A DNA stretch of 37,563 nt from an uncultured Verrucomicrobiota bacterium (lineage in GTDB: Bacteria; Verrucomicrobiota; Verrucomicrobiia; Limisphaerales; UBA9464): contig CAIVQB010000109.1 in NCBI GenBank assembly GCA_903907925.1, positions 1 through 37,563 of the forward strand. Reading direction: 5' to 3'. The position numbers and the translations under genes are program-made. Shown piece after piece: positions 20,902 to 37,563 of the stretch. How positions within the stretch are numbered: the first letter of the stretch is position 1; the number at the start of each line of letters is the position of its first letter. The notes under the pieces are model-generated. The model was given only the letters and a program-made list of their open reading frames with translations. It was not told the DNA's origin and did not search any database.

Positions 20902-23900
20902 ATGTCATCGCCCCAACTCCAACGGCTGAAGTCCTCTCTAGCTGCCGGCATCATGGGTATGTTGGCCACTTGGGCGACCGCCGTGGTTGGTGTTGCGGAG
21001 GTTGCCGTCGGTCCGACGAAAGCGGGGCCATCCCATTGGGCATTTCAACCGATCCAGGATCCCAATCTTCCGGCGGCAACGGCTTCCCGTCGATCGACCG
21101 ACACTCCCGTCGACCGGTTCATCGTGGCCCGGTTGACGGAACAAGGGTTGAACCTCGCTCCGGAAGCCACTCGACGGGTGTTGATTCGTCGGGCGGCGTA
21201 TGATTTGACGGGACTCCCCCCGACGCCCGAGGACATCAAGACCTTCCTTGATGATCCCGCGCCGGATGCCTTCGAACGGATGATCGATCGGTACCTGTCC
21301 TCGCCCCGGTATGGTGAACGTTGGGGACGCTGGTGGCTCGACGTGGCCCGATACGCCGACACCAACGGTCAGGACGAGAACAAGGTCATGGCCAATGCCT
21401 GGCGGTATCGCGACTGGGTGATCCGTTCGTTCAACGCCAACCAGCGGTTCGACTCGTTCATCACCGAACAACTCGCGGGTGATCTCCTCTCCACCAACGG
21501 CGTCAGCGAGCAGGCGCTCTTCGACCGCTGGACCGCCACCGGCTTTCTGGTGCTCGGACCCAAGATGCTCGCCGAGCAGGACAAACCCAAGCTGGTGATG
21601 GACATGGTGGATGAACAGATCGACGTCGTCAGCCGGGCGTTCCTGGGTCTGACCGTCGGTTGCGCGCGGTGTCACGATCACAAGTTCGATCCGATCCCGG
21701 CCCGCGACTACTACGCGCTCGCCGGAATTTTCAAGAGCACCAAGACGATGGCGAACCTGTCGTTCGTTTCAAAGTTCAACGAACGAAGAATCACCAGCGC
21801 CTCGCATCTGGAGGCCATTTCCGCTCATGAAGCGGCCGTTCGAGGACGCGGGAAGGAGTTGGAACAGGCCGTCCAGAAGGCCAACGCGGACCTGCTCGCG
21901 GGATGGCGAAACGAGTTGGGATCCAACCTGGCGGCGGCGGGAGCCTTGGAACGTGGGACGGTCCCTCCAAATGCCTCCAGCCGCAGTTCATCGATTCCTG
22001 AAGTGGTCAACCGGCTTCGGGAACGGATGATTCCCGATCCCAAAACCAATTCCGTCAGCCGGATATTACGACGCCTGAAGGATCAACCCGCCGCGTTGGA
22101 GGCATTCCTCGCGAAGATCGACCCTCCCGCGACCAACGCCGCCGCCCAGCAATGGGTGCCCGGTCGGATCGGTGCGGCGTTTCTGGCCACTGGCCACAAC
22201 TACCTGGAGATCCCGTCCTCGCCCGAACTGGAGCCCGCGCATCTCACGGTCGAGGCCTGGATGCGAGCGTCCGAGTTTCCGACCGAAGGCGACGCGCGAC
22301 GCTGGTTGGTGAGCAAGAACGCGAACGAGGAAACCCAGGGTCACTACGCCCTGATGCTGGATCACAACCGGGCAGGGGCGTATCTGAACATCGGTGGTGG
22401 ACGGGAGAATATCTATACCGTCTGGAGTTCGGACCCGGTGTTGAAACCCGACCAATGGTATCATCTCGCGCTGACCTACGATGGGTCGATGCTGCGCCTG
22501 TTTATGAACGGTCAACTGGCAGGTGAAACGGCCGTCAACCGTCCGCGGGTTCCGGGAACGGGTCCGCTGGTGCTCGGCCGGCGGCCGGACGGGTTCGTGA
22601 ATTTCAAGGGCACGCTGGATGAAGTGCGGGTCCATCGGCGGGCACTGGCGGCGGCGGAAGTGAAGGATCGATTCGAACATCCGGAGACGCCGTCCGGTGG
22701 CGACGTCGTGGCGCGTTGGGACTTCAACGATCTTTCCGAGAGCGAACGCGAGGCACTGGCATTTGCTGAAACCCGTGACGCCCTGTTTGGACCGGGCGGC
22801 GTTCTGGCGTTGCCCAAGGATCCGCGGCCGTTGTATCCAGCCTCGACCCGGGAGGCCATCAACGTTGCGGAGAAGGCGTTGGACGCATTGAAGTCGAGCG
22901 CGCCGCCGCCCCTGGAATTCGCCCTCGCCGTCGAGGAGGACAAGCCGGTGGATTTGCCGGTTCATCTTCGCGGGAGTCACCTGAACCTGGCCAAGGATCC
23001 GGTTCCGCGCGGATTCGTCCAGGTGGCGTTCAAGGCGGGGCCGACGCGGTTGCCGGCCGAGCAAAGTGGACGACTCGAATTGGCGCACTGGCTCACCGGC
23101 CCGGACAATCCGCTCACCGCCCGGGTCATCGTGAACCGCATCTGGCAGGCGCATTTCGGCGAAGGCCTGGTCCGGTCACCGGACAACTTTGGCGTGCGCG
23201 GCGAGGTGCCGTCGCATCCGGAATTGCTGGACTGGCTGGCCCGCGAGTTAATGCGGACCGGCTGGGATGTGAAGCGCCTGCACCGGTTGATTCTCTCGAG
23301 CGCAACCTGGCGGCAGTCCGGCGGCAGTAGGGAAGAGGGGCGAGGAAAGTCGGAGGGAATTTCTGTGGGCAACGCCGCGGATCCGGATGACAGGTTGCTC
23401 TGGCATTTTCCCAGGCAACGATTGGAGGCGGAAATGATCCGCGATGCACTGCTCGCGGTCTCGGGCCGTCTCGATGTCGCTCTCGGCGGATCGCTGGTGG
23501 ATTGGAAGAACGACGAGTACACGCCGAACGACGCGGTGTCCGCCGCCTCCGTCCGGCGTTCGGTCTACCTGCCGATCGTGCGCGACCGGGTGTTCGACGT
23601 GTTCACCATTTTCGATTTTGCCAATCCGAGTGTCGGCACTTCCAAGCGAACCCCGACGGTCGTCTCCCATCAGGCGTTGTTCTTTCTCAACAGTCCGTTG
23701 GTGAAAGAAAGCGCTCGTGGATTTGCTGAATCCCTGCGGACGGCCTCCGCGTCGGATCTCCCGCGCCGGGTGGGCCTGGCCTATGAACGTGCCTTCGGCC
23801 GGTTGCCGACCCCGGCTGAAACGGATCGGGCTCTCGAATTTGTCCGCCGAGCGACGCGCGGAACCGGGAGCGCACCCGAACTCGCGGCCTGGACCGCCTG

Positions 23901-35731: not shown

Positions 35732-35793
35732 GTACAAATAGCTTCCTCGAATCCATGTCACCGAACGGATTCCGAGCGCCAAAGGTGCGCCCC

Positions 35794-35964
35794 ATACCAG
35801 CCTGGGGTGCAAGCCCCAGGACTCGATCGATCTCAACTCATCAAGGGCTGAAGGCCCGTTCCAACGGGACAACCTTGTGATAGGTCCGAAGCCGATGTAT
35901 CGGGCTTTCAGCCCTTGACCGATCTCTCACTCCGTACCCTGGGGCTCGCGCCCCAGGCTGGTAT
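35794..35964. mobile_element. 171-bp MITE/REPIN-like palindromic element
   Basis: The ends are a perfect 14-bp inverted repeat, ATACCAGCCTGGGG (35794-35807) and CCCCAGGCTGGTAT (35951-35964). Each end also forms its own hairpin: CCTGGGG-TGCAAG-CCCCAGG (35801-35820) and CCTGGGG-CTCGCG-CCCCAGG with slight offset (35938-35957). Inside lies a second inverted pair, TCAAGGGCTGAAGGCCC (35841-35857) with GGGCTTTCAGCCCTTGA (35902-35918), matching at 16 of 17 positions. No transposase or open frame with function is inside, and no obvious target duplication is seen. It occupies the gap between pair 3 and the AT-rich genes. Read as a non-autonomous element, probably mobilised by a REP-associated (RAYT/Y1) transposase elsewhere. 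Confidence 0.8.
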
Positions 35965-36025
35965 GAAACGGACCGTTGGCCCTGGAGAGAGCGGTGGCCG
36001 AACCGGTTCCAAGGATTCGGGTTGC

Positions 36026-36778
36026 TCAGTTGGCGGGACGGAGCGGTCGAGGTGAAAATCGAGGCTCGAACGCATAAAAACGCTCCAGCATTGCGTCGCT
36101 CGGCTCACCGATAAGAGAAGTCATATGCTTTAAAAACCGCTCGTAGTTGTTCCGCGCGTCGACATCCAGCGAAATTCGCTGAGCATTCAAGTTGTTCAAC
36201 TCCGATTGGGCGCGAGTTTCCTTCTCCTCGGGTGAGAGAGTTGAATCCGCCTGTATCTGGCCGATCTTCGCGTTGTACGTGAAATCCAGGTCAAAGATGT
36301 CGTGGCGCATGTCCATTACATTTGCGCGCATTTCGTAGACCATTCGCACTGCGCTGTAGATGCGGGCACTGCCCGGCTTTTCGGACTCAATCAAATCCCT
36401 CACCCTTTTGAGATATGTTTCAAAGTCTACGTTTGATTCGAAGTCACTTTTGGCCATGAGTTCATACTGATCCGTTCCAATGAATTGTTCCATTGGACCA
36501 TCCACTACGACTGTGGTAATGGTAATGTTTGAGTGGACAATAAAATAGCTATTGGTCGCTCTTGTGGGGTGGCTTGATTGAAGAATCGAGTTGTGTGGAT
36601 CAATTGAGTGTTTTGCGGAGTTTGCCACGGTGCGAGTGTTCGAAATGGAGTCAACGACCACCCCATTTCCTGAGTTCTCGGAACCGATACTCTTCATTCC
36701 TATCTGGGTTTTCCAATACAGAATCGCGATCAAGCCAAATGAAACAAAAACTGCCAGAGCTAGTGGGCGTTTGTTCAT
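36026..36778 (-). CDS. Hypothetical membrane-anchored protein in AT-rich DNA
   Basis: Function not recognised. The ATG at 36778 gives 250 residues beginning with a short cytoplasmic stub (MNKRP), one hydrophobic segment (about 6-22) and then a soluble, Ser/Thr/Asn-rich part that would face the periplasm. Residues about 130-230 are rich in Glu, Asp, Arg and Leu and look alpha-helical, including SPEEKETRAQSELNNLNAQRI; a coiled coil is likely. Base composition is visibly lower in GC than upstream genes, and codon choice is more relaxed. It follows the secreted protein at 36825-37520 on the same strand by 46 bp, so the two may form an operon. Confidence 0.7.
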   Translation of the reverse strand: MNKRPLALAVFVSFGLIAILYWKTQIGMKSIGSENSGNGVVVDSISNTRTVANSAKHSIDPHNSILQSSHPTRATNSYFIVHSNITITTVVVDGPMEQFIGTDQYELMAKSDFESNVDFETYLKRVRDLIESEKPGSARIYSAVRMVYEMRANVMDMRHDIFDLDFTYNAKIGQIQADSTLSPEEKETRAQSELNNLNAQRISLDVDARNNYERFLKHMTSLIGEPSDAMLERFYAFEPRFSPRPLRPAN

Positions 36779-36824
36779 GTGTATTTGTTCCGGAATCCAG
36801 AGATTCAAACGTGGTAAGAGGCTG

Positions 36825-37520
36825 CTACCAAGTAATTCCAAGGCCTGCGCCGCTTCCATGCGTCAGGTTAAATGGGCCTCCTTTCGGGATCGTGGGGTAG
36901 GAAACACCATTGTTTGCGATCGAGCATGTAAAAGTTTCGGTGGATATGCCCGACACTTCATTGCAGTTGCTCCGCTCCCGATCCCATGCCGAACAGGTAA
37001 TCTTTGCATTTGTGACGGGTGACATATGGTGAGGATTCACCTTGTATCGATGCGTAACCTTAAATGTAATATTTGCATCAGTTGTTGCTGTAAAGAATTC
37101 CGAATTGCCCATGGGCATGGTGCATTGGTGAGTCCGAACACTAAATGGGATATCTCCTTCAGATCCACCTGCGGAGATTGAAAATGGCACTACTGAAGTG
37201 ATGTTAATCGGATTTTCAACCCCGGTCATCTGGGTCGTTCTTTTGAATAATGCCTTCCCTGCGCTGTTAACTTGAGCAACCCAGGTGCTGGATGAATTTA
37301 CGCCGCGATACGATGTGGTGGATTTGTACTCGTACTTATACAGTTCCATTACAACATCGGCGGCACCGAATCCGGCGGTTATTGGTGCGATGAGCGCACT
37401 TAAGCCATCTACTACAGGGCCGGCAGCCCCTGCCTTTTCTGCCATACAGCAATGGATTGATTGCAGAGCAACCGACATTGCGATGATGAATGTGGTGGTG
37501 GGGAGAATTGATATTTTCAT
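36825..37520 (-). CDS. Hypothetical secreted protein in AT-rich DNA
   Basis: Function not recognised. The 231-residue product starts with a signal peptide (MKISILPTTTFIIAMSVALQ, cleavage near the HCCMAEKA region). The mature part is rich in Thr, Ser and Asn, predicted mostly beta, with four well-spaced cysteines (in HQCTMP, ITCSAW, SNCNEV and FTCSIA) that could form two disulfides. The C-terminus is Gly-rich (THGSGAGLGITW). Composition is close to balanced AT/GC, unlike the rest of the window. It is the first gene of a possible two-gene unit with the membrane-anchored protein, and a 13-bp palindrome lies 25-37 nt ahead of its ATG. Confidence 0.7.
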   Translation of the reverse strand: MKISILPTTTFIIAMSVALQSIHCCMAEKAGAAGPVVDGLSALIAPITAGFGAADVVMELYKYEYKSTTSYRGVNSSSTWVAQVNSAGKALFKRTTQMTGVENPINITSVVPFSISAGGSEGDIPFSVRTHQCTMPMGNSEFFTATTDANITFKVTHRYKVNPHHMSPVTNAKITCSAWDRERSNCNEVSGISTETFTCSIANNGVSYPTIPKGGPFNLTHGSGAGLGITW

Positions 37521-37544
37521 AAACTCGATTGGTTTTTGTGACTA

Positions 37545-37557
37545 AATCAGACTGATT
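37545..37557. promoter_or_regulatory. 13-bp palindrome upstream of the AT-rich gene pair
   Basis: AATCAG-A-CTGATT is a perfect inverted repeat with a single central base, 25-37 nt upstream of the ATG at 37520. Size and position suit a repressor operator overlapping or following a promoter. The window ends 6 bp further on, so promoter boxes cannot be judged. A chance palindrome is possible. Confidence 0.35.
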
Positions 37558-37563
37558 GTGAAC

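What the first reader, a model, noticed from the sequence alone, without database searches (positions are those of the whole stretch)
36026..37520. Two unknown exported-protein genes with distinct base composition
A signal-peptide protein with four cysteines and a membrane-anchored helical protein lie 46 bp apart on the same strand. A 60-bp sample (37201-37260) has 26 G/C against 38 in a sample from the pair 2 gene (22861-22920). Neither sequence resembles a family I know. They look like a transferred two-gene unit, for example an anchored receptor with a secreted partner.
Basis: partly seen in the sequence, partly recalled or inferred. Interest (0 to 1): 0.5.

Follow-up and report, generated by a model that had tools for sequence, protein, structure and literature searches.

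The report
Fast-changing exported protein with anchored partner
A small low-GC gene pair in an uncultured bacterium makes an exported protein that changes unusually fast between relatives and a membrane-anchored partner that is often duplicated; it looks like a module for conflict or recognition at the cell surface, but its function is untested.

Summary
Gene A (36825-37520, minus; signal peptide, four mature cysteines) and gene B (36026-36778, minus; one N-terminal helix, helical domain) lie 46 bp apart at 48% GC in a contig that is otherwise about 62% GC. The pair is a real conserved unit. In 320 genomes of the order, A is in 13 and B in 16, with 12 in common, all in one family and three genera. 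A comes first, followed on the same strand by one to six B paralogues (plus a fragment in the longest array). No profile, solved-structure or fold library names either protein.

Between two species of the genus A has dN 0.129 and dS 0.078, its neighbour B 0.032 and 0.078, and a control gene 0.003 and 0.136. At one shared chromosomal site whose flanking protein is 95-98% identical to that of one reference genome, the A proteins are 27-70% identical to that genome's A.

My preferred reading is an exported variable effector with membrane-anchored, immunity-like partners (0.38). A hypervariable surface protein with its assembly partner is a close rival. It works like a polymorphic-toxin/polyimmunity locus, but no known toxin or immunity domain was found, so I do not file it as a member.

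The parts
36825..37520 (-). gene A, 231 aa: signal peptide (about 1-27, read from the sequence), second hydrophobic stretch (about 40-58), predicted all-beta domain, cysteines 133/176/186/199; exported, fast-evolving family
36026..36778 (-). gene B, 250 aa from ATG 36778 (the longer mechanical ORF starts at 36859): N-terminal hydrophobic helix (5-25), low-confidence linker (about 21-94), helical domain (about 95-240)
36779..36824 (-). 46-bp gap between A and B; the gap from A to the next ORF in 12 loci ranges from -4 to 102 bp, always on the same strand
37472..37563 (.). last 92 bases of the contig, identical to C135:102-193; in C135 the first 16 or so codons of A are followed by the end of a multicopy element
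35775..35983 (.). dispersed imperfect palindromic repeat just 3' of the pair, many copies in the genome; probably not part of the module

Best explanation
Genes A and B are a compact, exchangeable envelope-conflict module. SHOWN: A has a signal peptide and is followed on the same strand by B or a B array; A changes much faster than B or the neighbouring genes; the unit is patchy and sits at several different chromosomal sites. INFERRED: A is exported by Sec, folds as a disulphide-stabilised beta protein and acts outside the cytoplasm on kin or close relatives, as a diffusible or surface-bound effector whose exposed face diversifies. B is held in the inner membrane by its single helix with its helical domain on the same side as A, where it binds and neutralises A (its own, or those of neighbouring strains). 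The tandem, variable B copies would then be a membrane-anchored polyimmunity array.
For: A is directly followed by a recognisable B in 12 of 14 loci with enough sequence; in the other 2 (L062; L148, where the A match itself is weak) an unrecognised ORF with an N-terminal hydrophobic helix overlaps A by 4 bp. Two further A copies lie too near a contig edge to tell (L141, L146). B arrays hold 1-6 ORFs of 220 aa or more on one strand, plus one 140-aa fragment in the longest, the layout described for homogeneous polyimmunity loci (PMC3482391, passages read). A diversifies: G002/G004 A dN/dS 1.64 (bootstrap P(dN<=dS) 0.028), B 0.41, with A and B differing in replacement-to-silent changes (Fisher p 0.0066); control genes between the same species dN 0.003/dS 0.136 and 0.014/0.179. 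At a shared site in g3, A dN/dS is 0.61-0.85 where it can be computed, flanking gene 0.02-0.06, B 0.26-0.29. In G002/G004 the signal-peptide end is spared: about 3 replacement changes in residues 1-40, 7-16 per window in the rest. One cysteine is invariant in 12 of 12 A proteins and a second in at least 90%.
Against: No toxin or immunity domain was recognised in any of 12 A or 24 B members, and PADLOC found none in the window pair. B is under purifying selection and does not diversify along with A (G022/G028: A 39%, B1 76%, B2 61% identical), whereas a cognate immunity protein is usually expected to co-diversify; B may bind a conserved part of A or not bind it at all. dN/dS above 1 was seen in one pair only, and the within-gene Fisher test there gave p 0.079; G038/G047 A is at 0.41. 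No secretion system or cell-targeting part was noticed beside the pair. The A fold model is of low confidence (pLDDT 63).
Confidence: 0.38

Rival explanations
1. A is a hypervariable surface-exposed protein (a target of phages or protist grazers, or a kin-recognition tag), and B is its conserved membrane-anchored export, assembly or retention partner. A varies to escape recognition and B stays conserved because it handles the unvarying part of A.
For: A varies and B varies much less. A sits at a variable chromosomal site in g3 with alleles 27-70% identical to that of G040, beside a flanking protein 95-98% identical. Signal peptide and cysteines are kept.
Against: It does not explain why B, not A, is amplified to as many as 6 diverged copies beside a single A. 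No surface-layer, pilin or outer-membrane anchor domain was recognised.
Confidence: 0.3
2. A secreted ligand (A) and an anchored receptor (B) form a signalling or self-recognition pair.
For: Exported plus single-helix membrane topology and an operon-like layout. A and B similarity across 11 loci correlates (r 0.83 over pairwise identities, not corrected for shared ancestry).
Against: B has only a few residues before its helix, hence little to signal with inside the cell; no kinase, sigma-factor or anti-sigma domain was recognised; the ligand would evolve much faster than its receptor.
Confidence: 0.12
3. The genes are drifting passengers of a low-GC island under relaxed constraint, with no selected function.
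For: Low GC, patchy presence, one copy of A interrupted by an IS-like end, dN/dS of A near 1 in some pairs.
Against: A frames stay open at 16-44% identity to the window protein across three genera, and conserved cysteines persist; B is under purifying selection, dN/dS 0.26-0.41. A changes far faster than its flanks while staying in frame.
Confidence: 0.1

Closest known systems
Homogeneous polyimmunity loci of polymorphic toxin systems (Zhang et al. 2012, PMC3482391; passages read; author name recalled)
   Same: Tandem paralogues on one strand with short gaps, copy number differing between close relatives, next to a fast-evolving exported protein.
   Different: No known Imm or Tox domain; B is membrane-anchored; the putative effector has a plain signal peptide and no large delivery module; the passages name extended arrays (four or more genes) only from proteobacteria, bacteroidetes, firmicutes and actinobacteria, as of 2012.
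Secreted bacteriocins with a membrane-located immunity protein (recalled, not tested by any search)
   Same: Small exported variable protein encoded just upstream of a small membrane protein.
   Different: A is about 230-280 aa with a predicted beta domain and a Sec-type signal peptide; no double-glycine leader was established (one of 12 members gave a Bacteriocin_IIc match at E 0.049).
Conserved staphylococcal antigen Csa1A (4bih), best VIA-align row for A
   Same: Weak structural match: Z 4.4, rmsd 5.2, 104 residues, 6% identity; exported tandem-paralogue family (recalled).
   Different: Z 4.4 is within the range of unrelated folds; the PDB sequence search gave no relative.

Membership tests
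Polymorphic toxin / polyimmunity system | Recognisable toxin domain in the effector | tested here: not met
   12 A members against Pfam-A: 2 weak matches only; PADLOC no match for the window A
Polymorphic toxin / polyimmunity system | Recognisable immunity (Imm) domain in the partner | tested here: not met
   24 B members against Pfam-A: 22 weak, mutually inconsistent matches, none an Imm family
Polymorphic toxin / polyimmunity system | Partner gene immediately downstream, same strand | tested here: met
   Recognised B in 12 of 14 loci with room; unrecognised membrane-helix ORF in the other 2
Polymorphic toxin / polyimmunity system | Tandem same-strand immunity paralogues, number variable between close relatives | tested here: met
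   1-6 B ORFs plus a fragment; G049 and G040 share flanks but have 6 plus a fragment and 4
Polymorphic toxin / polyimmunity system | Effector toxic, partner protective | not testable with these tools
   needs an assay
Known fold or family of any kind (Pfam, NCBIfam, PHROGs, PADLOC, PDB) | Significant match of A or B | tested here: inconclusive
   No significant curated-profile or PDB-sequence match; B gave one PHROG of unknown function at E 0.003; Foldseek none at E <= 0.001; models built from 3-4 sequences, so absence is weak evidence
Phage or plasmid cargo | Homologue in phage or plasmid records or viral contigs | tested here: inconclusive
   A by tblastn: no match in 50,697 phage or 72,556 plasmid records at E <= 0.1; g3-type B patterns gave 260 stretches in viral contigs, none confirmed; B was not searched in phage or plasmid records, nor A in viral contigs

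The most novel reading that the evidence does not exclude
A previously undescribed interference or self-recognition system of Verrucomicrobiota: a Sec-exported, diversifying effector of unknown fold, neutralised by a membrane-anchored helical immunity family that is stockpiled in tandem arrays at a fixed chromosomal hotspot and carried elsewhere as a two-gene cassette.
Probability: 0.3. Interest if true: 0.7.

Novelty: new variant of a known kind. Interest (0 to 1): 0.48.

Why it matters
If A is an effector and B its immunity, this would be a very compact weapon-and-shield design (two short genes, membrane-anchored immunity arrays) in a phylum where, as far as I recall, little is known about contests between strains. 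If A is instead a recognition target, the same locus marks where phage or grazer pressure acts on these uncultured bacteria. Either way the shared g3 site with strongly differing A alleles is a ready-made marker for strain-level typing and a direct test case for diversifying selection.

Tried and rejected
Known-family labels: Pfam, NCBIfam, PHROGs and PADLOC gave only weak, inconsistent matches or none. The PHROG match of B at E 0.003 is to a helical stretch in a family without function, so I gave it no weight. The Ca_bind_SSO6904 match of window B (E 0.04-0.05; 14 bits against a cut-off of 25) is not accepted.

Fold searches: no row stands out. A: best VIA Z 4.4. B: best VIA Z 7.0 to SPX-domain helices, in the range of unrelated helical bundles. 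Gamma-haemolysin and leukotoxin rows in Foldseek for A have E 0.16 or worse and TM-scores below 0.2; I reject them as evidence for a pore former.

Mobile element: no transposase or integrase was noticed beside the pair (the neighbouring ORFs of the relatives were mostly judged by eye, not by profile), and no phage, plasmid or viral-contig relative was found. Cassette mobility is inferred only from differing neighbours. G038/G047 and G049/G040 are counter-examples: there the locus is syntenic.

Contig-edge enrichment: 10 of 20 loci lie at or within 1 kb of a contig end against 6.2 expected, P 0.047 (loci flagged by hand, rounded genome statistics, cut-off chosen after seeing the loci). I treat it as not established.

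Empty site: the window's flanking genes have orthologues in relatives, but no relative joins both flanks without the pair, so no empty site was shown. Of 18 g3 genomes searched for the hotspot flank, 14 matched. The five with a 72-73% identical flank (G009, G016, G036, G042, G044) have other neighbours; of the three remaining ones without A, G026 and G043 have the flank at a contig edge and G034 has only 657 bp before it, so none shows an empty site.

Literature: four completed searches; their listings held no description of this pair. I read passages of PMC3482391 only.

Full report
Setting. The window is the whole of contig C109 (37,563 bp) of a 148-contig, 4.6-Mb genome. The three relatives that could be named are Verrucomicrobia MAGs. 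That they come from lakes or reservoirs is my reading of the isolate names and was not checked in a paper. notes that the record of the window's own genome may be left out, so the window's name is not known.

The observation. Gene A (36825-37520, minus, 231 aa) and gene B (36026-36778, minus, 250 aa) are present. The unit is 48.3% GC; the lowest of the 1495-bp windows (50-bp steps) in bases 1-35700 is 57.5%. Contig C135 overlaps the last 92 bases exactly and, after about 200 bases at 49-51% GC, enters a host-like gene at 58-71% GC. If C135 continues C109, the low-GC stretch is an island of roughly 1.5-2 kb.

A real, conserved unit. Single-sequence searches of 194 relatives gave A in 12 and B in 13; two of the 12 A matches, at E 0.005-0.008, did not recur in the profile search. 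Profiles over 320 genomes of the order gave A in 13 and B in 16, all in one family and three genera of 118. Twelve genomes have both (chance overlap 1e-17, ignoring that the genomes are related). The one A-only genome (G041) has an unrecognised ORF with an N-terminal hydrophobic helix in the B position. In all four B-only genomes (G001, G026, G031, G034) B is cut by, or within 120 bp of, a contig end on the side where A would be. A sample of 387 genomes of the phylum gave B only in the window's own genome. In 14 loci with room, a recognised B follows A in 12 and an unrecognised membrane-helix ORF in 2 (L062, L148; the A match of L148 is weak); two more A copies are too near a contig edge to tell. 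The gap after A in 12 loci is -4 to 102 bp. One B was recognised in each g1 and g4 genome that has it. In g3 there are arrays: two in most loci, four in G040, and six plus a 140-aa fragment in G049.

Not in a fixed place. The gene next to the window pair (a DUF1501-type protein by recall) has orthologues of 83-88% identity in five of eight relatives searched. The downstream neighbours differ, and the A and B matches of those genomes lie on other contigs or, in G006, are absent. G022, G028 and G031 share B arrays at 73-82% DNA identity with flanks that do not align apart from one 72-bp stretch (G031 is cut by a contig end). Against mobility, G038/G047 and G049/G040 are syntenic across the locus, and G002/G004 share part of the upstream region. 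In g3, six genomes (G022, G038, G040, G046, G047, G049) hold A- or B-family genes next to the same flanks: QueG (name recalled) and a DMFA2_C protein on one side, a beta-lactamase-fold protein on the other. In three of them (G022, G038, G046) the two sides lie on separate contigs, so their being one site is inferred. In G047 no A was found there; the genes nearest the DMFA2_C side are other unknown ones, among them a small cysteine-containing protein with an apparent signal peptide.

A is the fast part. Between G002 and G004, A has dN 0.129 and dS 0.078; B 0.032 and 0.078; two DUF1501-type genes 0.003/0.136 and 0.014/0.179. The dN/dS of A is 1.64; the bootstrap gives P(dN<=dS) 0.028, but the within-gene Fisher test is only p 0.079, so positive selection is suggested, not proven. 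The difference from B is firmer (p 0.0066). Other A pairs: G038/G047 0.41 (flanking genes 0.02 and 0.12); hotspot pairs 0.61, 0.62 (partial), 0.69 and 0.85 (flanking gene 0.02-0.06). For G040/G049 and G049/G022h silent sites are saturated, and G022/G028 is near saturation (dS 3.1, ratio 0.21), so these say nothing about selection. The nine B pairs lie at 0.26-0.41. G022/G028: A 39% identical, B1 76%, B2 61%. In G022 and G028 the low GC belongs to A (0.44 and 0.43, against B1 0.57 and 0.60); in G038/G047 both genes are about 0.40, and in the window both 0.48.

Anatomy. A has a signal peptide (read from the sequence; no predictor was run), a second hydrophobic stretch (19-residue mean of at least 1.0 in 10 of 12 members) and a predicted all-beta domain (pLDDT 63, pTM 0.63; residues 1-43 unreliable). 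Cysteine 133 is invariant in 12 of 12, cysteine 186 in at least 90%. B has an N-terminal helix, an unstructured linker and a better-predicted helical domain (10-residue blocks of pLDDT 58-97). No known fold stands out.

Explanation. An exported, variable protein next to amplified, anchored partners is what an effector with immunity proteins would look like, and the B arrays match the published description of homogeneous polyimmunity loci (PMC3482391, passages read). The main difficulty is that B is conserved while A varies, which fits a surface protein with an assembly partner almost as well. I give 0.38 to the first and 0.30 to the second. Membership in polymorphic toxin systems is not claimed: no toxin or immunity domain was found.

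An interrupted copy. In C135 the first 16 or so codons of A run into 101 bases that also occur at 12 further places, each within 64 bp of a contig end. This looks like the end of a multicopy insertion sequence; no transposase was identified. C109 reads through uninterrupted, so the assembly holds two versions of the start of A. Whether they are alleles in a mixed population or a second, truncated copy is not resolved.

Noticed in passing
L004 (contig C135) 1-101, and the ends of 12 other contigs of the same genome: A sharply bounded repeat of at least 101-139 bp lies within 64 bp of the ends of 13 contigs, probably the terminus of a multicopy insertion sequence; in C135 it interrupts gene A near codon 16.
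   Followed up: partly
35775-35983: Dispersed imperfect palindromic repeat; the 1.8-kb query gave 104 matches in the genome, of which 102 are to this stretch, one of them the stretch matching itself.
   Followed up: partly
L063, L064, L141/L140, L144/L143, L146/L145, L147: A shared chromosomal site in genus g3, between QueG/DMFA2_C and beta-lactamase-fold genes, carries exchangeable low-GC cargo: A/B arrays with differing B numbers, and in L147 other unknown genes including a MauE-like membrane protein (E 5e-5, 24 bits, below the cut-off of 27) and a small cysteine-containing protein with an apparent signal peptide.
   Followed up: partly
L060 3024-6216: Near the B array of G031 lies an unknown 601-aa ORF of lower GC (0.54) followed by a 448-aa ORF of 0.70 GC with an N-terminal hydrophobic helix, possibly an enlarged analogue of the A/B layout; neither gives a hit with the A or B profile.
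   Followed up: partly
L146/L141 (gene A of G038 and G046): The first 70 or so codons show no DNA difference, then divergence sets in, suggesting recombination that swaps the mature part of A.
   Followed up: no
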